A stretch of DNA of 64,000 nucleotides from NCBI GenBank assembly GCA_037974665.1, contig CM075764.1:91332825-91396824 (forward strand). Reading direction: 5' to 3'. The notes under the pieces are model-generated. The model was not told the DNA's origin and searched no databases. It saw only the letters and a program-made list of their open reading frames with translations. The position numbers were made by a program, and so were the translations under genes. The DNA comes from Ehretia macrophylla. Its lineage: Eukaryota > Streptophyta > Magnoliopsida > Boraginales > Ehretiaceae. Position 1 is the first letter of the stretch. The number at the start of each line of letters is the position of its first letter. Shown piece after piece: positions 9,212-63,788 of this stretch.

Positions 9212-9887
9212 CTCAAAGGCATCACTACTTAGATATAAGTTCCTTCACGTTATAAACTCCTCGAAGAAGTTTAACAACAGCTTTGGAGTAATGGTCATAG
9301 TCAATCGGCTGTAGATCCAAGTAAAGATAAATATTTGCTTTAACTAAAGAGCACAAGCCCTCAACAAAGAAGTCCCTCAACAAACCGTCATGTAGATAAA
9401 GGTATGTAAGTGCGGGAGCATTTATCTCAAGCTTGTAGACATGCTCTTCAGGAAAGGAGCTATATTCACCGTTAAAGCAGAACCAAAGAGAAAATTTGTC
9501 TATGGTTTGTTGATTACCAACTGCAGCGGCTATCCATTTAGTAACATCGTAAAACACGCAATATTTCCCTATCTTAAGAGAAAATTTGTCTATGGTTTTT
9601 TGATTGAGTAATAGCAAAACCTTACTAACAAAATGTGCAAACTTAACCTTCCTGTCTTTCATGCTCGGATTGTACAGCCTGTTGTCATCATCGAAAGAGA
9701 GAATAGGGATAGTTGTCCAGAGGAATTCCCACTTTTTTGATAGCAAGCTGGTGGATACAGCGTCCTTGGTTGGAAGAAATGAGAGAATGTGACAAAGAAC
9801 AGATTCTGGCATGTCGCTAATCCTATCAACATCAGTTGAAGGTCGTCGGCGCTTACGGCCAGAATATTTTCTTGCACGCGATCACAT
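9212..9887 (-). pseudogene. F-box copy A exon 1 (F-box/LRR family), broken
   Basis: F-box proteins recruit substrates to SCF ubiquitin ligases through SKP1. The 196-codon open section 9225-9812 contains a clear F-box (MPESVLCHILSFLPTKDAVSTSLLSKKW...) and the family's KLEINAPALTYLYL block and YDHYSKAVVKLLRGVYNVKEL end. The ancestral start (9885-9887, aligned with copy B) is followed at once by TGA. About 120 codons of the LRR middle are missing, with TIDKFSL duplicated around the gap. A frameshift near the end removes the normal DAFE|gt splice junction (donor at 9210-9211). Intron 1 runs from 9211 to 6818 with no recognisable coding exon inside. Confidence 0.8.
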
Positions 9888-10039
9888 ATTAATCAGCGTT
9901 GTGGAAACACTTTGATGCCAAATTTAGAGGCTGAAGAAGGCCGAAGACGGTGGAGATTTCTTGGGTTTTGATAGCTTTTCTGGGCTTTGGCTTGTGAACA
10001 CTTGATTTTTGCAGTTAGTCTTGTCCGCGGGGAAAATGA

Positions 10040-10300
10040 AAGCCCCCACCACACACCCAACGTTTTAAATTTTTTAAAAAATATCTATGTAGTATTATTA
10101 AAAAAATTTATCGGCCCAAAATTTATATAGTATCATTAAAAAAATATTTTGGCCCTCTTAACATTTTAGGATTTTAAAGTTTTTTAAAAATATCTATGTA
10201 GTATTATTAAAAAAATTTATCAGTCCTCTCTATTTTTAAAAAATTCTATATAGTATCATTAAAAAAATATTTTGACCCCCCAATATTGAATCTCTAGTTC
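10040..10300. repeat. AT-rich tandem repeat upstream of gypsy insertion
   Basis: Four degenerate units of about 50-55 bp built on 'tatgtagtattattaaaaaaattta' and 'atatagtatcattaaaaaaatatttt', each followed by a short GC-richer piece (cggccc, ggccctc, cagtcctc, gacccccc). No coding potential. It ends with 'agttccgcccctag', a phrase often found at decayed transposon ends. Confidence 0.6.
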
Positions 10301-10335
10301 CGCCCCTAGATGAAAGGTTTATGGGGTTGAACTAT

Positions 10336-11161
10336 TGTAATGACCGTCCAAATCAGACAAGACATCTCTTTCATTTTTTTATACCGTCCCTTTCATTTCT
10401 TTGCTCTCAATCGTAGAGGCCTTAGATAGAAGTTTTTTTGGATAAGGTAAGTAATTTAATAAAATTCATAGTCTAGAGGATTTATCATAGGTTGTGAAAT
10501 AATTTCTAGAATTAATTGTTGATGACTTATTTGGTAAGAGAAATTTTGGTTTATGTGTTTAAGAGACTGAAGTGGTTACTAAGATTTGCGATATTGTAAT
10601 TTGAGAATTTTTTTTCTTGGAACAAAGTGTAAGTGGAATTCATCTATTTTCCTCCAAACATTTCCTATGCTCACCTTAATTTTTAGATCCAAGATTTGTT
10701 CCCTCTTATGTTATATCGTTCAGTTAGTATAAGTTTAATTCGAAAGTAAATTTGATATTTCGTTCGTTAAGATCTCTTATTGTTAGTTTTCCCTTAAGGA
10801 TTACTCCGGACTTTGAGTTATTTAATGATTAAGTTCATATGGAATTGTTAAATAAAATTATTATTATTTTGGATTTTGTTCTATTAAAATGACCAAATTT
10901 AAGATATTATGTAATTGTTAGATTTTGTACTTTTAATTATCCTTTTCATCTTTTACTATTGAAATTAAAAGATAAATTTTAAACTATTGAAATTAAAAGA
11001 TTGATTTAAAAAAAAAAGAAAAAAAAAGAAAAAAGAAAGTCACTGGAAATGACTTTTTTTTTAAGGTCACTTACAGTGACTTTCGAAAAAGTCACTTAGT
11101 GACTAGCGTCTTTGGTCAGTCGACTAGAGATGTTAATATTTTATCGATATTAATTTTTAGT

Positions 11162-11228
<67 letters not shown>

Positions 11229-12235
11229 ATTGTATACTTTATTTATTTTAAAAGAAAGTCAAAAGTAGCATTTAAAGAGTTTGTGTTGTTATTCTATACA
11301 TTTTAGCTGTGGAATTAAATTCTATTCAATACGTAAATAAAACTCCTGTTATTTAATCGTATTATGATTTTGTCTCTAAGTTCGGATAAATCTTTAGGAA
11401 CCCTATTGTACTGTTTGATCACCGTCTAAAAGCTTCTCAGTCCTCGTTAACTTTGCACGTGTTCTTTATTTATGATTTTCTATATCATGAAAAAAAATTT
11501 ATAATTGTGTTACTTTAGTTGTACCGATACTGTTACGGTACCACGGTACAGGAACTGTAACTGTAGCATTTTAGTGGGTACTAATACCCCCACTGTATGA
11601 ATTGGGCCTAAATTTATTACTAAACCGACACTGCACAGGTTAAATGCAGTCTCAACTATTTCTATATATTTTGTTTATGAGTCATGTTAGTGACTATTCC
11701 CTTCTGTTCTACTAAATGTATTGGCCTGTCAATTATTAACCAACTGTTGTGAAATTTGTGAATTCACATCAAAAATTTTATGACTTAATCCCCAAGTTGT
11801 ATTTTTATTATGGATTGAATTCCCTTATTGAGCTTTTGTTCGCTCACCACTTTTGCCTCCGGCTGCTTTCTTTGCAGTTAAAACAGAATAAGCACTACAT
11901 CTATGAGCAGGGTAGAGACACCCGAGCATGACGATTTAGTGACATGAAATTTACTTTATTGAATGTTATTAGGATTCGGATTGGAACTTTATTTGTGACA
12001 TTTGGGTTTGATTGTATTAATTTTGAGGATATGTTCTTTATGACTATTTGGATATTTGGTTTGTAATTGAATACATATAGTTTGATTGGAAGTCTTTAAA
12101 TATTTATGGTTTAGTGGCTCTGATTTGAGTGTTTAATAGATGTGCACCTAGCAAGCTTTAGGGATTTTATCCTTTTAGCACGCAGCATGTCACGTGCCGA
12201 GACAGTGTACAAGTGTTTAATTTCGGGGCATGACA
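10336..12235 (+). mobile_element. 5' LTR of the chromodomain gypsy
   Basis: 1900 bp, from TGTAATGACCGTCC to GGGGCATGACA. Closely matches the 3' LTR (22601-24555), with scattered substitutions and small indels. The 3' LTR has about 160 bp near its start (22620-22780) that are absent here, and this copy has a long (TA)n run. A typical R/U5 block (ttattgagcttttgttcgctcacc) lies at 11825-11850. Confidence 0.9.
11165..11223. repeat. (TA)n microsatellite inside the 5' LTR
   Basis: About 29 TA units. The equivalent place in the 3' LTR (about 23503-23522) has only an interrupted 'cgatatatatagatata', so the array grew after insertion. Confidence 0.9.
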
Positions 12236-12239
12236 GAGA

Positions 12240-12257
12240 TGGTATCAGAGCCTAGGT
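12240..12257 (+). promoter_or_regulatory. Primer-binding site (initiator Met tRNA type)
   Basis: TGGTATCAGAGCCTAGGT lies five bases after the 5' LTR end. The first 12 bases are the usual complement of plant initiator tRNA-Met. Confidence 0.9.
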
Positions 12258-12383
12258 TTCATGACATGCTGACCTAGGTAGAATTTGGGTAAAAGGGATT
12301 AAGTGTATGTCGTATTGAATTTACGAATAAGACTTAGTTTTGATTTTTATTGTTTAATAGAATATTGTTTGAACTTTTAGAAT

Positions 12384-13710
12384 ATGGACAATCCTACCGG
12401 AAGTCGTGGCGCGAAAAATATTCTATTGACTGAACTTGTTCCACAAGGCTATGTGTTACGTTCACGACGAATTCAGATAGATAGAAATCAAGTACCGGTA
12501 AACGGTCCTATTATTACTGCTCCACAATCTGTGACACCGCTGACCGAGGTATCGCTGCCCGTATCATCGCACAAGTGCCTCATTTACATTATGTCGCAGT
12601 GCCTCAGTCTACCCCGTCACCGCGACCAGTATTTGAGGTACCTGTTATTGTAACACAAACAGTTGTTCCATCGGAGCATGTTCCGCTGCCATCAGTTCCA
12701 CCATCATTGCTTGTTCAAACACCTTTGATTATGCCTACACCATCAACGATTTCAATTGCACAAGCTGACCCAACGTCTTCAGCCACACTGATACCTCAAT
12801 ATGTATATATGCCACAGTATATACTAGGACCTTAGTATGCCCCTACATCTATGGTAGAATCATAGTCTGTTCAGTGGCCTCAATAATTTATCAGCCCTCA
12901 GTTCATGCAGATTCCACCGATGAATGCAGGGGATATGAAGTATCAGGCTTTTGAAAGATTTATGTAGATGAATCCTAAAACCTTTAATGGAGAGGGTGGT
13001 CCCCAGATATCATCTGAGTGGTTGATAGATATAGAGGATAATCTTTCTACTTATGATTATGATGAGGATCGAAAAGTGCAGTTTGGTACACGTATGCTGA
13101 AAGGTGCAGCAAAAGAATGATGGTCATTGCAAAAGGATCAGATGCCAAATCCGGTCACTTGGGCTCAATTTAGAGGTACATTTGAGTCTAGGTTCTACCC
13201 TCCATCCTACAAAAGTCAAAAGTATCACTGAGTTTATCAATTTAAACAGCGAGATATATCAATTGAGGAGTATGGATTGAAATTTAATGAGATGTCACGC
13301 TTTGCTCCTCAAATGGTGTCAAATGAAAAAGTAAAATAAAAAATGTTTGAGGCTGGCTTGCGTTTTGAGATACTTGAGAGTGTGGAGGCCTATCGTCACC
13401 AGACTTTTCAAGATGTGTATAATACTACATTGGTAATTGAGAAAAGGTTGGGGATTAAGAAAAGACATCAACAAAAGCTTGAAAATAAAAAGAGGGATCG
13501 AACTGGTGATTCTCAACATAGGGGCAAACAATAAGGCAATGCACCAAAAAGAGTTGTAACCGTAAGCAAAGAGAATAATGCTATAGAACGATGTAATATC
13601 TGTTTAAGGAGGCATCCACCAGGAGTGTGTTGGTGGAAGAGTGGAGCATGTCTATGTTGTAAGTCTAATGATCATCGTATTCGAGACTGTCCATTAGTTC
13701 AAGAGTAGCC
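12384..13710 (+). pseudogene. gag: gag of the chromodomain gypsy (capsid and zinc knuckle)
   Basis: Starts with an ATG (MDNPTGSRGAKN) after the PBS leader. A variable proline/serine/threonine-rich section (to about 12900) precedes the capsid core NPKTFNGEGGPQISSEWL, ending in the RDISIEEYGLKFNEMSRFAP region and FEAGLRFEIL. The zinc knuckle CCKSNDHRIRDC fits CX2CX4HX4C at about 13655-13695. There is at least one frameshift near 12600 and many stops; stops inside conserved motifs (AKE*WSL, GKQ*GNA, QE*PQT) fit TGG, CAA and CAG changed by one transition. Gag would build the particle around the RNA. Confidence 0.8.
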
Positions 13711-41754: not shown

Positions 41755-42819
41755 TCAGAAGATTACCTCAAAGGCATCAGTTCTTAGATATAGCTCCTTC
41801 ACGTTATAAACTCCTCGAAGAAGTTTAACAACAGCTTTGGAGTAATGGTCATATTCAGTCAGCGGTCTAGCAAAGTAGAGTTCAATATCTGCTTTATCTA
41901 AAGAGTGCAAACTCTCGACAGAGAAATCCTTCGATAAATGGTCACGTAGATAAAAGCATGTAAGGGCAGGAGCATTTATCTCAAGCTTGTAGTCATCTTC
42001 AGGAAAGAAGCCATCATCTTCATAGAAGTGGAAGGTGAGATTTGTCAATGTAGGAGAAGATATGGTAAAGTTGACCACATTGTCATACGCATCTCTTACG
42101 ATATACAGAGTCTGCAGCGATGAACAGCCAGATACAAGATTACGAAAAGATTCATCGCACTGGAAAATCACGTTGTTGAGCCTCATGGTTTTGAGATTTG
42201 GAAGACAAACCAAGGTTGGGACGTTGAGACTCATAACACCATCTAAATTAAGAAACTCTAGCGTCTTACAAGTGAGAAGACTACAAGGCAGCTGAATGCG
42301 TGGATCAGAAGGGGAAAACAAAGTTGTCGAACAAAACTCGAGCACTTTAACTTGTCTAGCAACTGCAGCGGCTATCCATGTAGTAACAGCATAATCCACA
42401 TAATATTCCATGATCCTAAGAGAAAACGTGTCTATGGATTGTTGATTGAGGAATAGCAAAACCTTACTAACAAAATGTGCAAACTTAATGTTCCAGTCTT
42501 TCGTAGCGCGCCGACTGAACTGCCTGGTGATATAATCGCTGAAAAAGAGATTATGTATATTCTTCCAGAGGAATTTCCACCTTGTTGATAGCAAGCTGGT
42601 GGCCACAGCTTCCTCCGTTCGAAGAAATGAGAGTATGTGAGAAAGAACCGATTCTGGCAAGTTGCTTAGCCTATCAACATCATTTGAAGCTTGTTGGCGC
42701 TTATGGCCAGAAGATCTTGCAAACGACGACATATTAATCGGAGAAGTGGTAACACTATGATGGAAACTCTTTGATTTTGATACCTGTTCTGGGTTTTGGC
42801 TTCCGAGTGAAAACCCCAA
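41755..42819 (-). CDS. F-box/LRR (FBD family) gene, copy B exon 1
   Basis: The longest gene-like ORF not from a transposon. F-box at residues 51-95 of the 354-codon ORF (LSNLPESVLSHILSFLRTEE, then TSLLSTRWKFLWKNI), followed by leucine-rich segments (LPCSLLTCKTLEFLNLDGV, VCLPNLKTMRLNNVIF) and KLEINAPALTCFYLRDH. Such proteins are substrate adaptors of SCF ubiquitin ligases. Comparison with copy A favours the Met at 42730-42732 (MSSFARSSG) as the start. Exon 1 should end at 41767 (GCCTTTGAG|gtaatc); the last codons of the ORF are intron. Splicing to exons 2 and 3 meets a stop 12 codons into exon 2, so only a truncated F-box protein without FBD could be made. It may be a young pseudogene. Confidence 0.75.
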   Translation of the reverse strand: MGFSLGSQNPEQVSKSKSFHHSVTTSPINMSSFARSSGHKRQQASNDVDRLSNLPESVLSHILSFLRTEEAVATSLLSTRWKFLWKNIHNLFFSDYITRQFSRRATKDWNIKFAHFVSKVLLFLNQQSIDTFSLRIMEYYVDYAVTTWIAAAVARQVKVLEFCSTTLFSPSDPRIQLPCSLLTCKTLEFLNLDGVMSLNVPTLVCLPNLKTMRLNNVIFQCDESFRNLVSGCSSLQTLYIVRDAYDNVVNFTISSPTLTNLTFHFYEDDGFFPEDDYKLEINAPALTCFYLRDHLSKDFSVESLHSLDKADIELYFARPLTEYDHYSKAVVKLLRGVYNVKELYLRTDAFEVIF

Positions 42820-44316: not shown

Positions 44317-44816
44317 TGTTGAGGTCGGAAATCCTCGCAACTGAGGTTGTACGGCTACGCCTTATTGAGCTGAACTTTCAGGTTGGCCTCCGAGCTGAAC
44401 TTTCGATTTGGCCTCCGAGCTGAACTTTCAAGTTGGCCTCCGAGTTGAATTTTCAGGTCGGCAACTGAATCTGCACAAGGAAAAGGAAGGAAAAGGCGGG
44501 GTGATGACCAGGATTTTCCCCTTGGGCGTGCGAATGATTAGTATGTCCGAGCTGGCAAGGTAGCTGAGAGCATTTAATGACGAGTTACCTTTGAAATGAA
44601 GGGGATGGAGCTCTATTTATACTAAATTCGGGTCTGACAGCATTTAATGTTGTGCAGCTTTATGTCCCATCGGAACAACTGGCACTGAGGTTGGGGTTTT
44701 CCAGGGTCGGATTAGCATCCAGGTTGGGCATTTAGCTGAATGCGCCGGGCCCTGCTCTGATTAGCCCGTCTCAGCTCGGCGTGGGTAACTCACTTCAGCT
44801 CAACGTGGGTAACTCA
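44317..44816 (-). mobile_element. 3' LTR of the Tat-type element
   Basis: On the plus strand runs from tgttgaggtcggaaatcctcg to gtgggtaactca (500 bp). A purine tract (agaggggagggattga on the minus strand, about 44820-44836) precedes its minus-strand start. A 25-30 bp motif (gtgggtaactcacttcagctcaac) is duplicated at its right end. The phrase 'ctgaactttc...ttggcctccgag' is tandemly repeated three times (44372-44460). Confidence 0.8.
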
Positions 44817-45016
44817 CTTCAATCCCTCCCCTCTAAGTCGAGATCGAGGGGGTGAGATCTAGAATTGGGAGTTGCTCCCGAGCTAGAGGTGCCCGACCCC
44901 GGCAGAGTAAGGATGGCTACGTCAGCGACGCATGCCCTTCAGATAACTGACATGTCACCTGGCGGTTCTGACAAGAGGCGACGTTTGGGCTCCCCGAGGC
45001 GATTTTCAGAAGTGTC

Positions 45017-45024
45017 TATAAATA
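45017..45024 (+). promoter_or_regulatory. TATA box of the antisense gene
   Basis: TATAAATA on the plus strand lies about 222 bp upstream of the ATG at 45246, with a likely start of transcription near 45050 (ttcatttcacacttcgc). It is outside the LTR and points toward the antisense gene. Prediction only. Confidence 0.55.
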
Positions 45025-45245
45025 AGGCCTTGACATCCGAGATTCATTTCACACTTCGCTTTCAACTTTAAAGAGTTTTAGATCGGATACCAGAGTGGTT
45101 GGACGCATTTAGCTCAAAAAGAATCTTCTCGGGATTTTCAGCTCGGAACCAGCTAGGTCGGGTCACATTCCGCAACCAAGAGAAGTAGGTACGTCCCGAC
45201 TCCCTTTAATCATTCCTGTACATTTATATTTAGTCTGTAGATAGG

Positions 45246-47577
45246 ATGGGGATGTTGAAGCCAGAAGATTCTCAGGCAATGGAGGTGAGGTCCTATGGTG
45301 GGGATGAGAGTCTGTCGAGCTCGGAGTCTATCTCAAATAGAGACCAAGGTGAAGAAAGCACCAGTGCGTCTCTAGGATCAACTCGGAAATCTGGGCCCGT
45401 GGAGAGCGATGATGATTGCCAAGTTATTGGGGTCAGACTGGCACAAGAGGAGGCCGAGGCGGATCCTTTGGCCGACCTAGGAGACTTGGAAGATAGGGAG
45501 GATGAGGAGCTGCTGAATCAACTGAAGGGTGTCGAGATGCAACAAGAGTACCTAGCTAGAGTTTCTGCCGCTGAGCCGATCGAAGCAGTCCCGGTTAGTG
45601 TTCGACCTCGAAGCTCGGCCACAGCCAGTGCTTCTTCAACTCGGGGGAAGAGGATTGAGTAGTTGTTTGCCTGTTGCAAGCGTGAGTGCCATTCCACTGT
45701 ACAAATGGCCAACGCCAAGCTGAGGAACTGGTCAGTGGATCGTCATCACAATTTGAAGGTTCCAGGTCGGCACGAATTGGCTTGCTATCCTCTGGCCGAC
45801 CACTTCACCATTTACGATCTTGCATTTGACGTTATCCAGCTCTCCCTCCCCGATTTTGTTGTTGACATCTTGAACTACTTCTAGCTCAGCCCATGTCAGA
45901 TGTCGCCGAATGGTAAGGCCGTGATGGTGGCCTTCTATGTGTTCTGCCTTGAGAAGAAAGTGGAGTTGGCCTTGCGTAGGTTCAGGCATTTCTTTGTGTG
46001 CAAACCCAACCCAAAGCAGCCAGGGTGGTTCAACTTCGCAGCTCGAGTCGGTAACTCCATATTCACCAAGTGGCACTCTTCTAACAAGGGCTGGCATAAT
46101 GACTATTATTAGGTGGAGTCAGCTGTGAACTCTGGGTGTAGGTTGGACTGGATTCCAAGTTTAAGGAAGATTGTCAATGATGACCCCAAGCTCTCAAAGG
46201 AGGAACTTGAGGAAGTCATGATGCTCAGGCCTGCGCTCAGGATGCTGGTAGATATTGACAGCATGCTCAAATAGGAATGGATCTGGGATTCCAAGCTATT
46301 TGGTAGGGAACCCGACCTCTCGAGGGATCATCCCAACCTGCTTCCCGAGCCCGAAAGGGACGCGGGGTCTAGTTCAGAAGAGGGTCAGTTTGCAGGATCG
46401 GCACCCGACTTCCAAATTGTCCTGTCTGCTAGTCTTTTTAGGTTGGACTTCGGCTCTTTTTCATTTCTTTCCTCTACCTTTTGCAGGTATGGCGGATATG
46501 AGAAAACTCGCGTATGCCCAGGTGAGAAAGAAGAATGAGGCCAGCGGCAAGGCTTCAGCTCGGTCTGGCTTGGGAAGTGCTGCTCAGAGTCAGAGGCAGC
46601 GGCCCAGCGGCCAAGTGCGGGAGGTCAGCTCTAAGGTTTCCTTCAAGGGGGCGTCGGGTTCCCCCTTGCCTTAGAGAGCGGGCTCAAGAGCGGCGATCCC
46701 GGACCGGTCAGCATCCTGACCTGAGAGCAGAACGCGGCCTCGGGCCGAGTACTCCGGGAAAGCCAAGACCGCGGAGGTGAGCGCTCCCAACAAGGACTTC
46801 ATGGAGGCGACCAAGGTCGCTCGTGATCCCAAGTTGGCTACGGTCCTAGCAGAGCAGCTCTCGCTCGACCTGAGGACGGCCATAGTCACAGTGAGTCTTA
46901 TCCAACTTTTGGTAAGGTTATGCTTTTTAGCTCAGTTGATCATTTTGCTTTCTTTTAAACAGGTCGAGTCCTACATCCTTTTGGCTCCCGGCTTTCTTGT
47001 CAGGGCCCAGACTTATTGCGTCGAGCTCGAGTAGTGATACATGGATGCCCGTGCCGAGCTTGAGACTCTGAGAGAGGAGGTCGCCCAGAGGCGCAAAGCA
47101 GACGCGATGGAGATCGAGCGTCTGAAAAAGGAGCTTGATGCGGAGAAGTCCCGGCGTGAAGCGACGGCCAAGGACGCCGAGCGCTACAAGCTGGAGAAGC
47201 ATGAGGCCGAGACGAAGCTCCGGGATCTAGTGGACCGAGTCAGCCCTGAAGGAGAGAAGGCAGTGGAAGCCTTCAAGTCCAGTGATGCAGCCGTGGACTG
47301 GTTGGCTACGGAAGGTAGTGCCATGGCCAAGTATGCTGAGCTAGAGTTCTACTTCCAGGGTCAAGTCGCAGCTCGGGAGAGAGCGAAGACCTTTTTTCCT
47401 GCCACCAAGAATGACTATATTGAAATCTTGGAGGTTCCGCCACCAGAGTTCTGGGAAATTCCTGAGCTTCCGGCCGACCTGACATCCCAAGCGAAAGAGG
47501 TGACCAAATTTGTCCAAGAAGGCATGGACCAGGTTAGGGACGAGGCTGATGCAACCAATGCCGCTCCTCCAAAATAG
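45246..47577 (+). pseudogene. Antisense accessory gene of the Tat element (putative gypsy-type 'Transposase_28'-like protein with coiled coil)
   Basis: A three-exon model is in frame throughout: 45246-46383, 46487-46890 and 46963-47577, with GT-AG introns of 103 and 72 bp (phases 1 and 0), about 718 codons. The N-terminus is acidic and Ser-rich. Residues about 170-290 (YPLADHFTIYDLAFDVIQLS, then LSPCQMSPNGKAVMVAFYVF, FRHFFVCKPNPKQPGWFNFA, KWHSSNKGWHNDYY) resemble the plant family called putative gypsy-type transposon (PF04195). A Lys/Arg/Ser-rich linker follows, then a strong coiled coil (about 47041-47240, LETLREEVAQRRKADAMEIE) and an acidic tail ending AAPPK. Eight stops (TAG at 45660, 45882, 46110, 46272, 46672, 47032; TGA at 46717, 47035) interrupt it, each explicable by one transition from CAG, TGG or CGA. 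Role unknown. From memory, Grande-type elements also carry antisense ORFs here. Confidence 0.7.
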
Positions 47578-47579
47578 AT

Positions 47580-47660
47580 TTTATAAATCGGCCCGGGTTG
47601 GGCTTTTGTAATTTCGCCCAGGTTGGGTTCATTGTAATCTTGCCCAGGTCGGGCTCTGAA
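47580..47660 (+). repeat. 26 bp tandem repeat in the 3' part of the antisense gene
   Basis: Three units on 'cgcccaggttgggttcattgtaat' directly after the antisense stop codon. No canonical AATAAA; 'aatagaattaatg' near 47680 is a possible weak signal. Confidence 0.55.
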
Positions 47661-48208: not shown

Positions 48209-48356
48209 AGGCTCGGGGGTCGATTACAAGTAATTTTTTGGCTCGGGGCCTTAACAAGAGATTTTGGCTCGGGGCCGTAACAAAATATTTTGGCTCGGTA
48301 CCGTAACAAGAGATTTCGGCTCGGGGCCGTTACAAAATATTTCTGCACGGGGCCTT
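48209..48356. repeat. 26 bp minisatellite at the end of pol
   Basis: About five and a half units on 'ttttggctcggggccgtaacaaaa', alternating '-caagaga' and '-caaaata' endings (a 52 bp higher-order pattern). The array abuts the pol stop codon at 48356. Confidence 0.8.
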
Positions 48357-49300
48357 CAGACAAAATACCGCTTCAGGTGTTCTGAGTGCCATGCATTCTT
48401 CACTAGTTTTCCGTTCTTGTCGTGGAGGTAGAAGGTCCCAGGTCGGACTTCTCTCATGACTTCATACGGTCCCTCCCAGGTTGGGGAGAGCTTGTTACCA
48501 GAGCGTGGCAAAAAGATGGCCTTCCTGAGTACGAGGTTGCCAACCTTAATAGGCTTAGGCTTGACCTGTTTGGCAAAGACTCTTTGCATGGCAGCTTTGC
48601 TGGCCAGCATTCTGATTTGAGCTTTAGCTCGGAGCTCTTCGGTGAGGTCGAGCTCTTCACAGATCCGTGCTCCATTTATTTCTGAATCATGGTGGATGGT
48701 TCTACTGGTCGGGGACCCGATCTCCACTGGCAGCACTGCTTGAGTACCGAAGGTCAGCTCGAAGGGCAATTCTCCCGTTGCCCACAATACCTCGGGAAAA
48801 ATCGATGCCCATTGGCCCTCTGCTTCCTCCAGCTTAGTTTTCAGGCCCTGTAAAATGATTTGGTTAGTCCTTTCAACTTGGCCATTACTTTGAGGATGAA
48901 CAATAGACGAGAATCTAAGGTCGATCCAAATCTCAGCACATTTTTCTCGAAAGTATGCAATGTTGAATTACTTGCCGTGGTCAGCAATGACGGACTTTGG
49001 CACCCCGAATCGGCAAATGATATTTTTTCACACAAAATCTCAAGCTGCCTTTTCTGTTATTCTAGCAACATCTTCAGCCTCAGGGCATTTGGTGAAGTAG
49101 TCTACTGCTACGAAGGCGTGTTTCTTTTGGCCAACACTGGTTGGCAATGGGCCGATGATATCTAGACCCCACTAGTAAAATGGTCATGGGCTTATCATCA
49201 CCGTGAGGTCTACCGCAGGCTTCATCTGTACGTTAGTGAGCCTTTGCAGGTGTCGCACTTTTTTACAGACTCTTTGGCATCTTGTTCTAAGGTTGGCTAG
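48356..49300 (-). pseudogene. pol: Integrase of the Tat-type element
   Basis: The minus strand shows the zinc-binding end (KCDTCKGSLT), then the DDE core: WGLDIIGPLP with the first Asp, VIADHGK with the second, and SNGQVERTN with the Glu. The open C-terminal section 48356-48787 carries LPFELTFGTQAVLPVEIG, then GPYEVMREVRPGTFYL and SEHLKRYF. Several stops lie in 48790-49290. It would insert element DNA. No chromodomain, as expected for Tat. Confidence 0.75.
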
Positions 49301-50439
49301 AAATAGCCTTGTCTCAATGCCTTTCGAGCCAGAGCTTTGCCTCCCAAGTGATTTCCACATACCCCTTTATGGATCTCCCAGAGTACATAGTTTCCCTCCT
49401 TGGGTCCAACATATTTTAAGAGAGGCCAAGTGTAGGCTCTCTTATAGAGTTGCTCGACAATTATGACAAACCTTGAGGCCTGTTTCATGAGTTTTCGAGC
49501 TGCTTTTTCATTCTTTAGGGTCATACCCCCCTCCAAGTAGTCCACGATTGGTTTAGTCCAATCTGGACTTAGATTGAGCTCGGCTACGGCTTGCACCACC
49601 AACTGAATACTTGGTTCGAATATTTCTTCCACATAGACCAGGGTAGGTCGGCTCTCGCCCAAGGCCAACCTGGACAGGGCATCAGCCTTCATATTCTCTT
49701 CCCTCGGAATTTGCTGTATCGTGAACCTTTTGAGTCCTGAGGTCAAATCCTTGACTCTGTTGAGGTAGGCCAGCATAGTACTGTCCTTGGCTTCGAACTC
49801 TCCCAATATCTAACTAGAAACCAATTGAGAGTCGGTGCTCAGGTCGACTGTCTGTGCCCCGAGTTGAGCTGCAATTTTCAGCCCCGCAATTATCGCTTCA
49901 TACTCTGCTTCATTGTTGGATGCCAGAAAGGTAAACTTGAGGGAGTATTGGTGCTCATGCCGGGTCGGGTCGAGGATGACCACCCCAGCTCTGCTACCAG
50001 ACTTCACTGAGGCCCCATCCATATGGATCTTCCATACGTCCTCCGGGTTATGCTCGGCTCGGTTAGTGCATTCTACCACAAAGTCCGCGATGGCTTGGGC
50101 TTTAATAGCTGTTTTGGGCTGGTAGGTGATGTCAAATTGACTCACCTCAACTGCCCATTTCAGCAGCCTGCCCGACGCCTCCGGCTTGTGCATGATGGAC
50201 TTGAGTGGGGCATCCGTCATGACCTTAATCAGATGAGCGTCAAAGTTTGGCTTCAGCTTTCTTGCAGCCGTTATGAGCGCGATGGCGAGTTTTTCCAAGG
50301 AGGAGTACCTCACCTCGGCCCCTTGCAAGGTTTTGCTGATATAATAGACCGACTTTTGTTCCTTCCCTTCTTCTCGAACTAGTGCCACTGCCACTACTGT
50401 CCCCGAACATGCTAGGTATAGTACCAGCTCCTCTCCCAC
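49297..50439 (-). pseudogene. pol: Tandem RNase H domains of the Tat-type element
   Basis: The upstream RNase H (50439 to about 50110) reads VLYLACSGTVVAVALVREEG, then VYYISKTLQGAEVRYSSLEK. After a linker a second RNase H (about 50030-49690) starts HMDGASVKSGSRAGVVI and has NNEAEYEAIIAGLKIA, TDSQLVSS and MKADALSRLA. A second, archaeal-type RNase H is a Tat-clade mark. A TAG between SS and ILGEFEA (49808-49810 region) splits it; CAG to TAG would explain it. The frame then continues into the integrase zinc-binding region. Confidence 0.8.
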
Positions 50440-50487
50440 CTTAGGTCAGGATAGTAGGGGTGGCGAAACTAGATATATTTTCAGCTT

Positions 50488-51566
50488 TTAGAAGGCGTTT
50501 TGACATTCTATAGTCCATTCAAAGTTCTTAGGATTCCTTAATATCTTGAACAAGGGAGTACACTTGTCTACCGATATAGACATGAATCTGCTTAACGCCG
50601 CGACCTTGCCTGTTAACACCTGGATGTCTTTTACGCAGGTCGGCGGTGCCAAGTCGAATATCACCTGAACCTTCTCCGGGTTGGCTTCTATCCCACGGGC
50701 TATGACTATGAAGCCCAAAAACTTTCCCGCCTTGACGCCAAATGCGTACTTTTTCGGGTTCAGCTTTATCCCAAATTGCTCCATTACAGCGAAGGCTTCA
50801 TCTAGGTCGGTGTCATGGTCTTCCGCCCTTCTACTCTTGACCAGCATGTCATCCACATAAATTTTCATATTTCGGCCAATCTGATTTTGAAAACCTTGTT
50901 TACCATCCGAGTGTAGGTAGTTCCAGCATTCTTGAGGCCAAAATGCATGACCTCATAGTAGTAGAGACCTTTATCGGTGGTAAAGGCAGCCTTCTTTTTG
51001 TCTCCGGGTGCCATCTTAATCTGGTTATAGCCTTTGAAGGCGTTCATGAAAAAGATTAGCTCGAACCCGGAGGTGGCATCCACCATCTGATCAATCCGAG
51101 ATAGGGGAAAGCAGTCCTTGGGGCAGGCTTTGTTGAGGTCGGTGAAGTCAATACATAGTCTCCATCCACCTGAGGACTTGGTCACCAGGACCACGTTGGA
51201 TAACCAGGTTGGGTACTGGATTTCCTTTATGTGGCCGGCGTCTACTAATTTGTCCACCTCTTCTGCTATGATTTGTTACTTATCATAATGGAAGTACTTG
51301 TACTTCTGCTTTACCGGATGGTGATTCGGGTCGGCATTTAGATAATGCTCAATCACTCCCGGGTCAATACCTGTCATGTTAGAGGCAGACTATGCAAATA
51401 TGTGTTCATTTTTTAGAAGAAATTGGCTTATATCTTTCTTGAGGCTATGAGAGAGTTCACTTCCGATCTTTACTTTCTTTGTTTCATCGGAGAGTTCTAC
51501 CTCTTGAAGGTTTTCAGCTAGGCTTCCTCTCTTAGCATCCTTATTTCATTCGGGCAAATCTGGTCC
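50488..51566 (-). pseudogene. pol: Reverse transcriptase of the Tat-type element
   Basis: Motifs on the minus strand: GIDPGVIEHYLNADPNHHPV, VDKLVDAGHIKEIQYPTWLS, WRLCIDFTDLNKACPKD, FFMNAFKGYNQIKMAPGDKK, YYYEVMHFGLKNAGTTY, YVDDMLVKSRRAED. The first catalytic Asp (FMDAF in relatives) is Asn here, a G-to-A change. A one-base frameshift at about 50870-50880 separates MVNKVFK from MKIYVDDML. Stops near 51275 (K*QII) and 51390 (FA*SAS) fit CAA and TGG. Confidence 0.8.
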
Positions 51567-52040
51567 CTAGCCAACCTGATATTTGGGTCGGAGAAAATTT
51601 TTATAATATTCCCGGGCTGAGAGCTGGGCTCCGCGGATGGTGGCTGCGCCGGCCGGGGTCGGGAATTTTAGGGCCTGGTAGTAGGTAGAAAGGACGGCCC
51701 TAAAATGGTTGAGTGCCACTCGACCTAAAATCCTATTGTAAGTGGAGTTGTAATCCATCACAATGAAGTTGGCTTGCATTGAAACCCGCTTATCTCTGTC
51801 TTCCAATTTCAGCGAAAAGTTGATGACCTTTTCGGCTCGATAGGTATACCCAGTGAATCCAGCCAATGTGCCCCTCAATGGTCTAAGCCGGCTTCTGTCC
51901 AATCCCATTTGCTCAAACGCCTTCAAGAATAGGACTTCTGTCGAGCTACCGGTGTCTACCATCAACCTTTTCATGGTGAAGTTGGCTATTTCGGCGCTGA
52001 TTACCAGTGGGTCGTCATGGGGCAATATCACACATTCCAA
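51567..52040 (-). pseudogene. pro: Aspartic protease of the Tat-type element
   Basis: 157 open codons. LMVDTGSSTEVLFLKAFEQM has the catalytic DTG; YNRILGRVALNHFRAVLST is the second conserved block. It follows gag in the same transcriptional direction. It would process the polyprotein. Confidence 0.8.
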
Positions 52041-53600
52041 ATCCTCTGAGGAAAAATGAGCTCCTCCAACTCCGGGATCGGACCCCGCGCCGGCCCATAC
52101 TCTCTTCCGGCTCGAACATAACCCTTCCTGCCAACCGAGGTCTCTCCACCCGATGCCAATCCTCCGGCGATAGTCTTGATCACAACTAGACGTCCGCCCC
52201 TGGCTTGGCGTCTGGGTGGACTTCTCCCCTTGTCCCTCTGATCTTGGCTCCGGGTTGGCTGATTATCTACGTACCTCCGGAGGTGACCTCGGGCTATCAG
52301 TGCTTCGATCTCCTGTTTCAAGTCTTTAAACTCCTCGGTGGTATGGCTGTAATCCATGTGGTAGCGGCAATACTTGGTTCTGTTGCGCTTTTCAAGTCGG
52401 CCTTTCATTCTCGGTGTTGGAGGTAGATGGTTCTGGTGCTGGATCTCCAGTAAGATCTGCTCCCTTGAGGTGTTAAGTGGAGCGAACATAGTGAATCGGG
52501 GGTTTTGCTTAGGCTGCTGAGGCTGCTTTCCTCGGTCGTTTTGGATCTTACCTCCAGGTTGGGCTCGGGAGATTTCTCCATTTTTTCTAGCTTCCTTTTC
52601 TTTGTCATCGTCCCTCTTAGCTTGATGGATTTCCTCCGAGTATATGTACCCTTCTGCCCATACCATCAGCTAGGCTACGGTATCTACGGGGTCGATGGCC
52701 AAGGAAGAGTTAAGGGGTCCCGACCTAAGCCCATTTTGGTAAGCCATTAGTGCCATGGAATCCTCCAGGTTAGGGATCCTGAGGGTCTCTTCATTGAATC
52801 GGGTGGTGTAAGCCCTCAAACTCTCTCCTTTGTGATGTTTCACCGACAACAATGACGAGGTGTGACGCGTTGCACGTCGGCTTCCAGCGGAGCAGGAGCT
52901 AATAAAAACTTACAATAGAGCTGGGACAAAGTTTTTGGAACCAGTCCAAGGCATTGCCAACTAGGGTGGTTGGGAATATTTTCGTCCTCATGAGGTCGGT
53001 CATATCATGCAGAGTCATATGGTGGTCGAAGTTCAGCAGGTGGCTGGTTGGGTCTCCGTCCCCATTATAGATCACCAGGTTGCGCATCCGGTTGCAGGTG
53101 GGTAATGGCGTTGCCAGTACTTAGGGCGAGAGTGGGCTTACGCCGAGCTGGTTAATGACCTTGGCTATGGCAACCGCGGTCTTGGCCTGCTCAGGGTCGA
53201 CGTGGGCCTCCTTTTTTTCTCTCGCCTCTACGGGTCTCGCCTCCGGCTCTAGGAATCTTTCTCCGTCTTGTGCTCGGGTTCGCCCCGGGGCCGAAATGCA
53301 AAACTGTGGATGCATGGGCCGTGGTATAGTTGCTTGTGGAACTGGGGGTTCTGCAGCTAGCCGAGCTACTTGCTCCTTTAGCTCCTGGAACATCTTAAGC
53401 ATCATTCTCATCTCCGGCGTTAGGCTGGAGTTGAGGTCTCCATCTGTAGAGGGGTTGGTTTCTGAGGCTAAGTGTATACGTTGGCTCATTCCAACGTCAG
53501 CTTGGGTTTGATCTTGGATAGGCACCTGCGTGGTTTCGAGGTCCTCGTCCGGGCTAGGTGAGTCCTCTACCGGTGCGCTGTGGCTTCTAGTTTGTACCAT
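52028..53600 (-). pseudogene. gag: gag of the Tat-type element
   Basis: Starts MVQTRSHSAPVEDSPSPDED at 53600. It continues through an acidic and coiled-coil part (MLKMFQELKEQVARLAAEPP), then the capsid core (YNGDGDPTSHLLNFDHHMTL, NALDWFQKL, then KGESLRAYTTRFNEETLRI), and a basic tail with a CRYHMDYSHTTEEF motif near 52330. Stops at about 53119, 52897 and 52668 and a frameshift at 52855-52895 break it. The first two stops and 52668 fit glutamine codons changed by C-to-T. Confidence 0.75.
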
Positions 53601-53647: not shown

Positions 53648-53665
53648 TTCCTACAAATGGCGCCA
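53648..53665 (-). promoter_or_regulatory. Primer-binding site of the Tat-type element
   Basis: The minus strand reads TGGCGCCATTTGTAGGAA three bases after the LTR end at 53669. GGCGCC-type sites are usual in Tat/Athila elements and differ from the Met-tRNA sites in the other elements here. Confidence 0.75.
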
Positions 53666-53668
53666 AAT

Positions 53669-54112
53669 TGTTGAGGTCGGAAATCCTCGCAGCTGAGGTT
53701 GTACGGTTACGCTTTGCCAAGCTGAACTTTCAGGTTGGCCTCCGAGTTGAATTTTCAGGTCGGCAACTGAATCTACACAAGGAAAAGGAAGGAAAAGGCG
53801 GGGTGATGACCCAGATTTTCCCCTCGGGCATGCGAATGATTAGTATGCCTGAGTTGGCAAGGTAGCTGAGAGCATTTAATGACGAGTTACCTCTGAAATG
53901 AAGGGGGTGGAGCTCTATTTATACTAAATTCAGGTCTGACAGCATTTAATGCTGTAGAGATTTATGTCCCATAAATGCTTTATGTCCCATCGGAACAGCT
54001 GGCACTGAAGTCGGGATTTTCTGGGGTCGGGTCAGCATCTAGGTTGGACATTTAGCTAAATACGCTGGGCTCAACTCTGATTAGCCCGTCTCAGCTCGGT
54101 GTGGGTAACTCA
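53669..54112 (-). mobile_element. 5' LTR of the Tat-type element
   Basis: On the plus strand runs from tgttgaggtcggaaatcctcg to gtgggtaactca (444 bp). It matches the 3' LTR but has fewer copies of the internal 'ttggcctccgag' unit and of the terminal duplicated motif. Confidence 0.8.
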
Positions 54113-54279
54113 CCTAAGCTTGGGGACCCCTCGTCAGGCGCCATCCATATTTCTTATAATCATGTGATGTTTGTTGTTCGAAGTAGTAGGATTAGTGTTA
54201 TCACGTTACAAGGTGATAGACCTGTCAACAGCACATAGATTCTCCATGGATAGAGAAGACACAATATTATCATTAGTTA

Positions 54280-54613
54280 GGGCATCCTCAATAGAGTCTT
54301 CAAATGCAAAACTTTCATAATTTAGGTGTTTTTAGAGACTCCAGTCTCTAAAAACAACACTATTCATGATAAAAGTACGTGGGGTCCACCACTTTTGGCT
54401 TCAAAGATGCCAAAATAGAGACTCAGTCTCTATTTTCTTTTACAAATTTGTTAAAAAAATAGAGATTGGGTTTCTATATTGACATCTTTTAAGCTAAAAG
54501 TAGTGGATCCCACGTACTTTTACCATGAATAGTATTGCTTTTAGAGACTGGGGTCTCTACAAATACACAAATTAAAAAAGTTTTATATTTTAGAGATTCT
54601 ATTGAGGATAGAC
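54280..54613. mobile_element. MITE (Tourist-like), 334 bp
   Basis: Ends GGGCATCCTCAATAGAGTCT and the reverse complement of agagattctattgaggatagac are inverted repeats. The flanks are TTA (54277-54279; 54614-54616), the usual PIF/Harbinger target. The whole element is almost self-complementary (tagagactccagtctcta; aagtacgtggggtccacc against ggatcccacgtactttt). Non-coding. Confidence 0.85.
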
Positions 54614-54739
54614 TTAGCAGAAAGTAAGACAAAGGGGTTGATGACATAGTGCCGGTACTAGAGTCTAAATTTGTTGTGCATAGGTCAACACTTGTAGGCC
54701 AATATGGGATCATTGGCTCCTGCAAATTATTGTGAGAAC

Positions 54740-55555
54740 TCACATGGGGCACAGTGGAGCCACAAGAGGAAAACTGATTAACAGAAGGTAGAAGTTGATG
54801 TGGAAATTACTTGAACCTAAACCATGAGGAGTCATGGCATCAGTTGGTGAAGTGGAGATGCCTGGAAAATTTTGCTCATCAAATACCACATGACGCGAGA
54901 TAATAGTTTTGCTTGTAAGCGGATTGTAGCATTGATAACCCTTATGCATGGGGCTGTAGCCAATGAAGACACAACTACATCTTTTGAAATCCAACTTGTT
55001 TCGACCAAAGGTGCTAAGACAAAGATAGCACTTGAACCCAAAAACCCGAAGCATAGAATAATCTGGCAGCTATCCATGGACAAGTTCATATGAAAAATGA
55101 TTTGCAAGATTTGGCGTAGGAAGCCTATTAATGAGATATATAGCAGTCGAGAAAGCATGACACCAGAATTTTTTAGGCAAACGACTATGAGCTAGAAGGG
55201 TAAGACCCATTTCAACCACATGTCTGAGCTTCCGTTCAGCCACTCCATTTTGCTCAGGAGTTCCAAGGTATGACAATCGATGAGAAATCCCTTTTTGGCG
55301 AAACAGTGTTTGAACATGATGACTAATGAATTCGCCACTTGCATCACTTTGTATGTATTTAATTTTGGCATTACATAAATTTTTGACTTTAGCAATAAAA
55401 ATCGAAAAAATTGAAGCCACATCAGACTTACAATGCAATGGGTAAAACCATGCAAATCTATTAAAATCATCCACAAAAACAACATAATATCGAAACCCAT
55501 GAATTGAAGAAACCAGGGCTGGACCCCAAACGTCACAGTATACAATATTAAGCAA
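54740..55555 (-). pseudogene. pol: Integrase of the truncated copia
   Basis: The minus strand reads LNIVYCDVWGPALVSSIHGF (first Asp), KIKYIQSDASGEFISHHVQT (second Asp, with NGG changed to ASG), and YLGTPEQNGVAERKLRHVVE (Glu). Then FGFKCYLCLSTFGRNKLDFK and CSCVFIGYSPMHKGYQC, the C-terminal block. A frame change lies near 55060. The catalytic triad is present, but there is no downstream RT. Confidence 0.8.
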
Positions 55556-55567
55556 AGAAGTAGAACG

Positions 55568-56167
55568 CTAAGTACAAGAATCGAAAGATAATCTATGACA
55601 TTTTTCCAAGTGGCAGCTCTCACAAGGTGCATGTGAGATGGTCGAAGGAGCCACACCCAAGTCTTTATTGAGAGAATGCAAAACACATGCTGAAAGACGG
55701 CCTAAATGCGCATGCCAAACATCAGCAGGAACTTTAGATGCCCAAAGCATTGGTTTATTTGGAAGAAGAAATGAATAAAGTCCGCCATTAACCGTCCCTC
55801 GATGTAGAACACTGCCTGTCTTCATATCCTTAATCAAGTAACCAGAAGAAGTAAATACAAAATAACAGTTGTGTTCTTTAGTAAATTGAGCAACAGAGAG
55901 CAATCGTTTAGCAATATGAGGAACAATCAAAACATTAGAACGTAAAATAGCACCATTAGACATAACAAACGGAGCTTGGCCTGTGTGGGAAATAGATAGA
56001 CCTGCGTCGTTTCCAACCATAACATTATCATGTCTATCGTAAGGAGCTTTGCTAGAAAGATGCACATCGCCGGGAGCCATATAATGTGTAGCACCCGTGC
56101 CGACGTACCATTGAGGGTTTGCTAAATTAGAAACAGTCAGAGTGAAAATCCTTGGTGGTAGAATCAA
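55568..56167 (-). pseudogene. pol: Protease and pre-integrase of the truncated copia
   Basis: WYVGTGATHYMAPGDVHLSS is the protease site, but the catalytic Asp of the usual D(S/T)GA is Gly, so it is inactive. Then GQAPFVMSNGAILRSNVLIV and the pre-integrase zinc finger VWHAHLGRLS ... PCESCHLEKCHRLSF. A stop separates it from the integrase core at about 55568. Confidence 0.8.
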
Positions 56168-58243: not shown

Positions 58244-59011
58244 TGTTGGGAGGAAACCCGAAATTAAAGCACAAACAACAAATGCACAGTGGAAATAACA
58301 CCCTCCCACCTTGTATAAACCTGTTAGGAAGCAACAAATAGAGCCAATAACAATATGCACAAATCTGAAAATTCCAGAAAATAGAGCAATACCAAGATTT
58401 TAACTTGGAAAACCTCCCCAACGTGGAAAGTAAAAACCACGGGACCGTAGTCCACCCAAAAATTTTCACTATCAACAAATAATGGGTACAAAAAAGTCTT
58501 CTTTAGCTACAACTAGAGGCATACACAATACATTTACTAAGAATGACATATTCTTGCAAACATTGCATCAACAAAAGAGATTAAACCAAGAAATAGGAAC
58601 GAAATCACCAAAAACATCGTCACTGTTCACGTTAGAAAAACGGGCTATAAAGAGCTCCAAATCTGATTCCACCGTTCAAATTGAAGACCCAAGAGTTGTG
58701 AACATGCACGCAAAATTGCAGCTCAATCGGACCACAAATGACCTTCCAATCGTCGACTTGATGAAGATGGCACAGGCTGAAATTTTTGCTCTCTTTCTCA
58801 CTATTTTTCTCTCTCTGTTTCTTTTTCTCTCTCTCTCTCTCGTTCACTCACTCTCTCTTTTTCAAAACAAGTGACAGACCAGGTCTGTCCATTTCATTCT
58901 TTTTTTTTTGTTTATGGTTTTTCTCCTTTTTTTTGTTTCTTTTCTTTTGGTCAAAAAGCAAAAGCAAAAGAAAAAATAATTACCAACCCACATGGGTTGG
59001 TCTACACAACA
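58244..59011 (-). mobile_element. 3' LTR of the complete copia
   Basis: 768 bp; on the minus strand TGTTGTGTAGACC to CTCCCAACA. A purine tract (ggtgggggagttt on the minus strand, 59012-59026) precedes it. A (TC)n-rich stretch (58790-58860) and a long T-rich run (58900-58950) are shared with the other LTR. Confidence 0.85.
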
Positions 59012-63031: not shown

Positions 63032-63788
63032 TGGTTTGGAGGAAACTCGAAATCAAAGCACAAACAACAAATGCACAGCGGAAATAATACCCTCCTACCT
63101 TGTATAAACCTGTTAGGAAGCAACAAATAAATCCAATAACAATATGCACAAATCTTACAATTCCAGAAAATAGAGCAACACTAAGATTTTAACGTAGAAA
63201 ACCTCTCCAATGTGGAGAGTAAAAACCATGGGACCGTAGTCCACCCAAAAACTTCTACTATCAATAAATAATGGGTACAAGAGAGTCTTTTCTAACTACA
63301 ACTAGAGACATACACAATACATTTACCAAGAATAACATATTCTTGCAAACATTGCATCAACAAAAGAGATTAAACCAAAAAGTATGAAAGAAATCACCAA
63401 AAATGTCATCATTGTTCACGTCAGAAAAACGGGCTATAGAGAGCTCCAAATCTAATCTCCACCGTTAGATTGAAGACCCAAGAGTTGTGAATATGCACGC
63501 AAAATTTCAGCTCAATCGGACTACTAATGACCTTCCGACCGTCGACTTGATTAAAATGGCGCAGACTGAAATTTTTGTTCTCTTTCTCACTATTTTTCTC
63601 TCTCTGTTTCTTTCTCTCTCTCTTTCTTTTTCAAAGTAAGTGTTGCTGGTCTGTCCATTCTATTCTTTTTTTTTGTTTATTGTTTTTCTCTTTTTTTGTT
63701 TTCTTTTCTTTTGGTCAAAAAACAAAAACAAAAACAAAAGCAAAAGCAAAAAATAATTACCAACCCACATAAGTTGGTCCACACAACA
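63032..63788 (-). mobile_element. 5' LTR of the complete copia
   Basis: 757 bp; on the minus strand TGTTGTGTGGACC to CTCCAAACCA. Collinear with the LTR at 58244-59011 with many substitutions and short indels, so the insertion is not recent. Confidence 0.85.

What the first reader, a model, noticed from the sequence alone, without database searches (positions are those of the whole stretch)
45017..47660. Spliced antisense gene inside a Tat retrotransposon with its own TATA box
Opposite to gag-pol, one reading frame extends through three exons with GT-AG introns of 103 and 72 bp whose phases fit exactly, giving about 718 codons. A TATAAATA sits upstream and outside the LTR. The conserved middle resembles PF04195 (putative gypsy-type transposon) and the C-terminal third is a coiled coil. 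A gene that keeps introns cannot have been copied through its own sense spliced RNA, so it must travel on the unspliced antisense strand, the genomic RNA. That suggests a retained function for the element or a host gene captured in reverse.
Basis: partly seen in the sequence, partly recalled or inferred. Interest (0 to 1): 0.8.

Follow-up and report, generated by a model that had tools for sequence, protein, structure and literature searches.

The report
Intron-bearing antisense gene in plant retrotransposons
A family of plant jumping genes carries, on its back strand, a three-part protein gene whose two introns sit at the same places in distantly related copies; back-strand genes of this kind are already known, but the introns look undescribed in the papers I could see.

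Summary
Opposite a decayed Tat-type gag-pol, three exons (45246-46383, 46487-46890, 46963-47577) join in phase to 718 codons with eight internal stops, behind a TATA box outside the LTR. This copy is dead.

In 39 close relatives plus the window, all three exons show coding constraint (codon positions 1-2 diverge 0.10-0.18, position 3 0.34-0.36). Both introns diverge like position 3 (0.33, 0.38). Indel runs in multiples of three: exons 101 of 139, introns 5 of 164. Two more distant families in the same genome (exon 1 about 55% and 30% identical) carry both introns at the same sites and phases. Spliced-junction patterns match 0 times genome-wide; unspliced donor patterns match 1,067 and 597 times.

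An antisense TRP28 (PF04195) gene between pol and 3'LTR is already a published hallmark of Retand elements (PMC11963269), and an own promoter is reported for Grande (PMC7264820). The two ancient introns appear new: "intron" occurs in neither paper. Splicing itself was not observed; no RNA data were available. Likely role, inferred: a nuclear accessory regulator that works like HTLV-1 HBZ. A captured host gene is not supported.

The parts
44317..44821 (-). 3' LTR of the element (the element runs on the - strand); edges set by eye
   Evidence: LTR alignment with 53669-54116; repeat D2; purine-rich tract of the - strand next to it at 44822-44837 (by eye)
45017..45024 (+). TATAAATA box of the antisense gene, outside the LTR
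   Evidence: Sequence; exact TATAAATA in 37 of 40 group A rows; found 1065-1094 bp before the SSNKGWHN motif in 3 of 6 group B and 1302-1308 bp in 2 of 3 group C loci, 1060 bp in the window
45246..46383 (+). Exon 1: acidic N-terminus and TRP28 (PF04195) region; four internal stops in this copy
   Evidence: PF04195 on piece 45885-46109; p-distances by codon position .128/.102/.335
46384..46486 (+). Intron 1, phase 1, 103 bp; pyrimidine-rich end
   Evidence: GT in 39 of 40 and AG in 36 of 40 rows; p-distance .325; T 41%, 87.5% pyrimidine in the 20 nt before the acceptor
46487..46890 (+). Exon 2: linker with a basic NLS-like cluster in most copies; two internal stops here
   Evidence: basic cluster in 32 of 40 rows, the window not among them
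46891..46962 (+). Intron 2, phase 0, 72 bp
   Evidence: GT in 38 of 40 and AG in 40 of 40 rows; p-distance .380
46963..47577 (+). Exon 3: probable coiled coil and conserved C-terminus, ending in TAG; two adjacent internal stops here
   Evidence.178/.127/.364; weak coiled-coil family matches
48356..53600 (-). Decayed gag-pol of the carrier element (RT at about 50491-51257)
   Evidence: ORFs; PF00078 RVT_1 50.2 and 34.9 bits
53669..54116 (-). 5' LTR; edges set by eye; a TGGCGCC primer-binding-site-like stretch lies next to it at about 53650-53667
   Evidence: LTR alignment, 34 transitions and 3 transversions in 427 columns, K2P 0.0945; reading of the primer site recalled

Best explanation
It is a dead copy of a real three-exon, two-intron protein gene (TRP28/PF04195, basic linker, coiled coil) that lies antisense between pol and the 3' LTR of Retand-like Tat retrotransposons and has its own TATA promoter. 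Transcribed from its own promoter on the + strand, the antisense RNA would be spliced and translated. The element itself copies through the sense genomic RNA, in which the introns read as reverse complement and are not spliced; so each new copy inherits the introns, and they have persisted across at least three diverged families. Shown here: coding constraint on three exons, neutral-like introns, conserved splice signals, TATA and phases. Inferred: that splicing happens, and that the product is a nuclear, probably oligomeric accessory regulator of the element's expression or integration, working like (not homologous to) HTLV-1 HBZ. I put the gene anatomy at about 0.9 and the nuclear-regulator role at about 0.45.
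For: Codon positions 1/2/3 diverge .128/.102/.335.178/.141/.358 and .178/.127/.364 in exons 1, 2, 3; introns .325 and .380; indel runs in multiples of three 101 of 139 in exons against 5 of 164 in introns. Intron lengths fall in all three residue classes modulo 3, with GT-AG kept. Stops per 100 codons .70/.78/1.02 in the coding frames against 1.17-4.97 in the other frames. Same positions and phases in group B (GT 6 of 6 and 6 of 6, AG 4 of 6 and 5 of 6) and group C (GT 2 of 3 and 3 of 3, AG 3 of 3 and 3 of 3), whose exon 1 is 55% and 29-30% identical. A TTTA microsatellite fills intron 2 of one group C copy where another has a T run. Spliced junctions 0 and 0 genome-wide against 597 and 1,067 unspliced donor matches; 29 and 26 of 40 copies would match the spliced patterns if spliced. 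TATA kept in 37 of 40. Role: Grande's antisense product is nuclear with its own promoter (PMC7264820 passages); basic cluster in 32 of 40; TRP28 predicted to bind DNA (PMC11963269).
Against: No RNA evidence of any kind. Intron 1 has a weaker donor (mostly GTCAGT), and 4 of 40 rows lack its AG, including one of the 4 rows without internal stops. In one copy an open frame of 616 codons runs through both introns, so retention isoforms are possible. All relatives come from one genome; a protein search found none elsewhere, so age across species is untested here. In exon 2 one - strand frame has nearly as few stops (1.17) as the coding frame (.78). Copies were chosen from a list ranked by PF04195 score and I favoured long open frames, so counts of open copies are biased upward. 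Nuclear location and regulation were not tested.
Confidence: 0.82

Rival explanations
1. Ordinary unspliced antisense ORFs: TRP28 and the coiled coil are separate ORFs, and the 'introns' are just non-coding gaps between them, as the published surveys treat them (ORFs over 600 bp).
For: PMC11963269 lists antisense ORFs one by one and never mentions introns; in some copies introns happen to be open in frame.
Against: Exon ends carry GT-AG with pyrimidine tracts kept in most decayed copies; phases 1 and 0 are the same in three families; exon 2 and exon 3 open in frame right at the acceptors and exon 2 has no conserved start of its own in phase.
Confidence: 0.1
2. A host gene with its introns was captured in reverse orientation by the element.
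For: Introns in antisense orientation are what capture of genomic sequence in reverse would leave; an ancestor of this sort cannot be excluded.
Against: No copy outside an element seen: 38 of 40 six-kb loci have Tat pol on the opposite strand, 2 have none in the locus; Vicient 2025 finds no TRP28 similarity outside TEs. It is shared by families whose integrases are 62% identical, so not a recent capture. The comparison with the plant mobile domain PF10536 did not complete.
Confidence: 0.12
3. The antisense transcript acts as RNA (double-stranded RNA, silencing or interference) and coding is incidental.
For: PMC7264820 raises this role for antisense transcripts.
Against: Constraint is at codon positions 1 and 2 with position 3 and introns free, which an RNA role does not explain.
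Confidence: 0.05

Closest known systems
Antisense TRP28 (PF04195) aORF of Retand elements (Vicient 2025, PMC11963269)
   Same: Same domain, same place (pol to 3' LTR), same antisense direction; LTR about 0.5 kb, internal region about 8.8 kb and pol-3'LTR about 3.5 kb fall in the published ranges
   Different: Described as single ORFs; no introns mentioned in the text searched. Here two introns join TRP28 and the coiled-coil ORF into one gene
Grande gene 23 / RIRE2 / PvRetro13 antisense aORFs (Vicient and Casacuberta 2020, PMC7264820, passages)
   Same: Antisense between pol and 3' LTR; gene 23 has its own promoter and a nuclear product; PvRetro13 ORF2 carries an SMC (coiled-coil type) domain
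   Different: No intron described in that review ('intron' 0 times); the primary Grande and Retand papers were not held
HTLV-1 HBZ (PMC1459196, abstract seen)
   Same: Spliced antisense transcript of a retroelement coding for a regulator; nuclear and coiled-coil (bZIP) by general knowledge
   Different: Starts in the 3' LTR; no sequence relation tested or claimed; here the promoter lies outside the LTR
Ogre gag-pro/RT intron (PMC6317226, passages)
   Same: A Tat-lineage element that carries a spliceosomal intron
   Different: Sense strand, removed from part of the genomic transcripts; here antisense, so never removed from the genomic RNA

Membership tests
Retand lineage of Tat (Ty3/gypsy) | Antisense TRP28 ORF between pol and 3' LTR | tested here: met
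   Layout; PF04195 20.4 bits in the window's own copy (below cut-off), 43-48 bits in three sister copies
Retand lineage of Tat (Ty3/gypsy) | Sizes: LTR 315-1,194; internal 7,380-12,869; pol-3'LTR 2,933-6,566 bp (PMC11963269) | tested here: met
   About 505 and 448; about 8,847; about 3,535 bp from coordinates
Retand lineage of Tat (Ty3/gypsy) | RT phylogeny | not tested
   RVT_1 found but no tree with reference RTs was built
Spliced antisense gene | Splice sites, phases and coding constraint conserved | tested here: met
Spliced antisense gene | RNA reads across the junctions | not testable with these tools
   No transcript data at hand
HBZ-like antisense regulator (works like) | Nuclear protein that modulates the element's own transcription | not testable with these tools
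   Only a basic cluster in 32 of 40 rows and literature on Grande
Captured host gene | Homologous gene outside the element | tested here: inconclusive
   None in 40 six-kb loci (38 beside opposite pol, 2 without pol in the locus); no PDB sequence match, no protein-database match; no other plant genome was searchable

The most novel reading that the evidence does not exclude
The antisense gene of Retand retrotransposons is one ancient spliced gene whose two introns date from before its families split and have been kept by every cycle of retrotransposition, because the genomic RNA reads them backwards. Published 'separate' antisense ORFs (TRP28 and SMC-like) would then be exons of one HBZ-like nuclear regulator, a plant counterpart that arose independently, and the introns would act as a strand lock: only antisense mRNA from a nuclear promoter, never the packaged genome, yields the protein.
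Probability: 0.4. Interest if true: 0.75.

Novelty: new variant of a known kind. Interest (0 to 1): 0.56.

Why it matters
Antisense genes of Retand elements are widespread and of unknown function; surveys count them as single ORFs. If they are spliced, ORF-based annotation splits one protein into pieces and misreads its domains, and a 2020 review asked exactly for a search for antisense spliced transcripts (PMC7264820). It also gives a clean natural case of spliceosomal introns preserved through reverse transcription, and a directly testable parallel to the antisense gene of a human retrovirus.

Tried and rejected
Protein homologues outside the genome: 4,735 candidates, none at E 0.001; the database probably lacks such plant proteins, so this is no evidence of absence. 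IMG/VR scan: one match, L049, a phage-like contig where 13-24 residues match opposite phage-like ORFs; rejected as chance. PDB profile search: 0. A bacterial promoter scan of the upstream region gave nothing of use. A fifth element, a 52-nt AG/GTACGT...TGTAG stretch at 45189-45240 in the leader, looks like a micro-intron but is shorter than plant introns usually are (recalled); left open. A PF10536 (plant mobile domain) search to test a common origin did not complete. Acceptor-side control patterns did not complete; one search replaces them with a count on the 40 aligned rows.

Limits: 48 of the 150 listed PF04195 matches (3,551 first-look candidates) were fetched: the 8 best-scoring by the tool and 40 picked by me, favouring long open frames. 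Indel runs are counted against the window row, so events shared by descent count repeatedly. Ages from LTRs use recalled rates (1.3e-8 and 7e-9 per site per year): 3.6 and 6.8 My.

Full report
What is there. The carrier is an LTR retrotransposon on the - strand with LTRs at about 44317-44821 and 53669-54116, a decayed gag-pol (48356-53600; RT recognised by PF00078) and about 3.5 kb between pol and the 3' LTR. A TATAAATA box sits at 45017 outside the LTR. The LTRs differ at 37 of 427 aligned sites (34 transitions), K2P 0.0945, or 3.6-6.8 My at two recalled rates. This copy is therefore dead.

Is it a gene? The host genome holds many relatives: a PF04195 search found 3,551 first-look candidates and listed 150, with no match in 14 control genomes. 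I fetched 48 loci (8, 40; long open frames favoured). By best match 39 belong with the window (group A), 6 to group B and 3 to group C. Aligning the 39 with the window (40 rows) gives a clear coding signature in each exon: mean pairwise differences at codon positions 1/2/3 are .128/.102/.335 (exon 1).178/.141/.358 (exon 2) and .178/.127/.364 (exon 3). Of indel runs against the window row, 101 of 139 in exons are multiples of three. Stop codons are rarest in the claimed frame of each exon (.70.78, 1.02 per 100 codons; other frames 1.17 to 4.97, the closest being a - strand frame of exon 2). Four of 40 rows have no internal stop when the projected exons are joined; one of them lacks the AG of intron 1.

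Are the gaps introns? Both diverge like third codon positions (.325 and .380), and only 5 of 164 indel runs in them are multiples of three. Their lengths fall in all three residue classes modulo 3 while the splice sites stay: intron 1 GT 39 of 40 and AG 36 of 40; intron 2 GT 38 of 40 and AG 40 of 40. Median support for the majority base at interior columns is 32 of 40 and 27.5 of 40. T makes up 41% of each intron against 20% of exons, and the 20 nt before the acceptors are 87.5% and 72% pyrimidine. A test against these being chance gaps is their recurrence in other families. Group B exon 1 (one open copy aligned) is 55% identical to group A, group C (two aligned) 29-30%. Group B shows GT in 6 of 6 and 6 of 6 and AG in 4 of 6 and 5 of 6 for introns 1 and 2 (read by eye); group C GT in 2 of 3 and 3 of 3 and AG in 3 of 3 and 3 of 3. 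The phases are 1 and 0 throughout. In group C, intron 2 of one copy is a TTTA microsatellite where another has a T run, which a reading frame could hardly bear.

How do the introns survive? A gene copied through its own spliced mRNA would lose them. Patterns of 31 letters across the spliced junctions, with up to 3 mismatches, match 0 times in 1.58 Gb (junction 2; junction 1). Patterns across the unspliced donors match 597 and 1,067 times, with 0 for the reversed controls. The spliced patterns were not too strict: 29 and 26 of the 40 rows would match them if their introns were removed, against 14 and 23 of 40 that match the donor patterns. Copies of other subfamilies, or old ones, would be missed. 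So copies arise through the sense genomic RNA, in which the introns read backwards.

Own promoter. TATAAATA is exact in 37 of 40 group A rows, and occurs at a similar distance before the TRP28 motif in 3 of 6 group B loci and somewhat further in 2 of 3 group C loci. The leader diverges little (.172). It also lies next to the element's own 3' end, so part of this constraint may serve the sense strand.

What does it make? Exon 1 carries PF04195 (46.9, 48.1 and 43.2 bits in copies of groups A, B, C). Exon 2 is a linker with a basic, NLS-like cluster in 32 of 40 rows, the window not among them. Exon 3 looks like a coiled coil, on weak Pfam matches. No solved structure matches by sequence, so the fold is open.

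What is known. Vicient 2025 (PMC11963269; abstract, passages, one part of section 11, and the Discussion read) shows that antisense ORFs with TRP28 between pol and 3' LTR occur in 97% of Retand clusters, predicts DNA binding, reports no similarity outside TEs and suggests regulation. Vicient and Casacuberta 2020 (PMC7264820; passages) report transcription of Grande's gene 23 from its own promoter, a nuclear product and weak expression for Retand, and ask for a search for antisense and spliced transcripts. Neither text contains the word intron. Further library searches listed no paper on introns in these genes, though the primary Grande and Retand papers are not held, so priority is not settled. 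HTLV-1 HBZ is a spliced antisense gene (PMC1459196, abstract), and Ogre has a sense-strand intron (PMC6317226, passages).

Reading. The antisense gene is known; that it is one gene with two old introns seems not to be. An inference follows: the SMC-like antisense ORFs listed beside TRP28 ORFs in the survey may be exon 3 of the same gene. The likely function is a nuclear regulator of the element, by analogy with HBZ and with Grande gene 23; this part is untested. A captured host gene remains possible as a remote origin, without evidence: 38 of 40 six-kb loci have Tat pol on the opposite strand, 0 on the same strand, and 2 have no pol within the locus.

Noticed in passing
window 45189-45240: In the leader, a 52-nt stretch AG/GTACGT...CTGTAG just before the start codon is kept in most group A rows and looks like a very short leader intron.
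   Followed up: partly
L016 2352-4202: A 616-codon open frame runs from inside exon 1 through both introns into exon 3, whose lengths there are multiples of three; intron-retaining products are conceivable.
   Followed up: partly
L024 about 3640-3700: Intron 2 of a group C copy holds a TTTA microsatellite where its near twin L025 has a run of T.
   Followed up: no
window 54489-56167, - strand: ORFs that look like copia-type integrase pieces lie next to the 5' LTR (named by eye); the element may sit in or beside a copia element.
   Followed up: no
window 58245-58544 and 63034-63333: A 300-bp direct repeat, 90% identical, 4,789 bp apart, probably the LTRs of another element.
   Followed up: no
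window 41755-42819, - strand: A 354-codon ORF resembling an F-box/LRR protein by eye.
   Followed up: no
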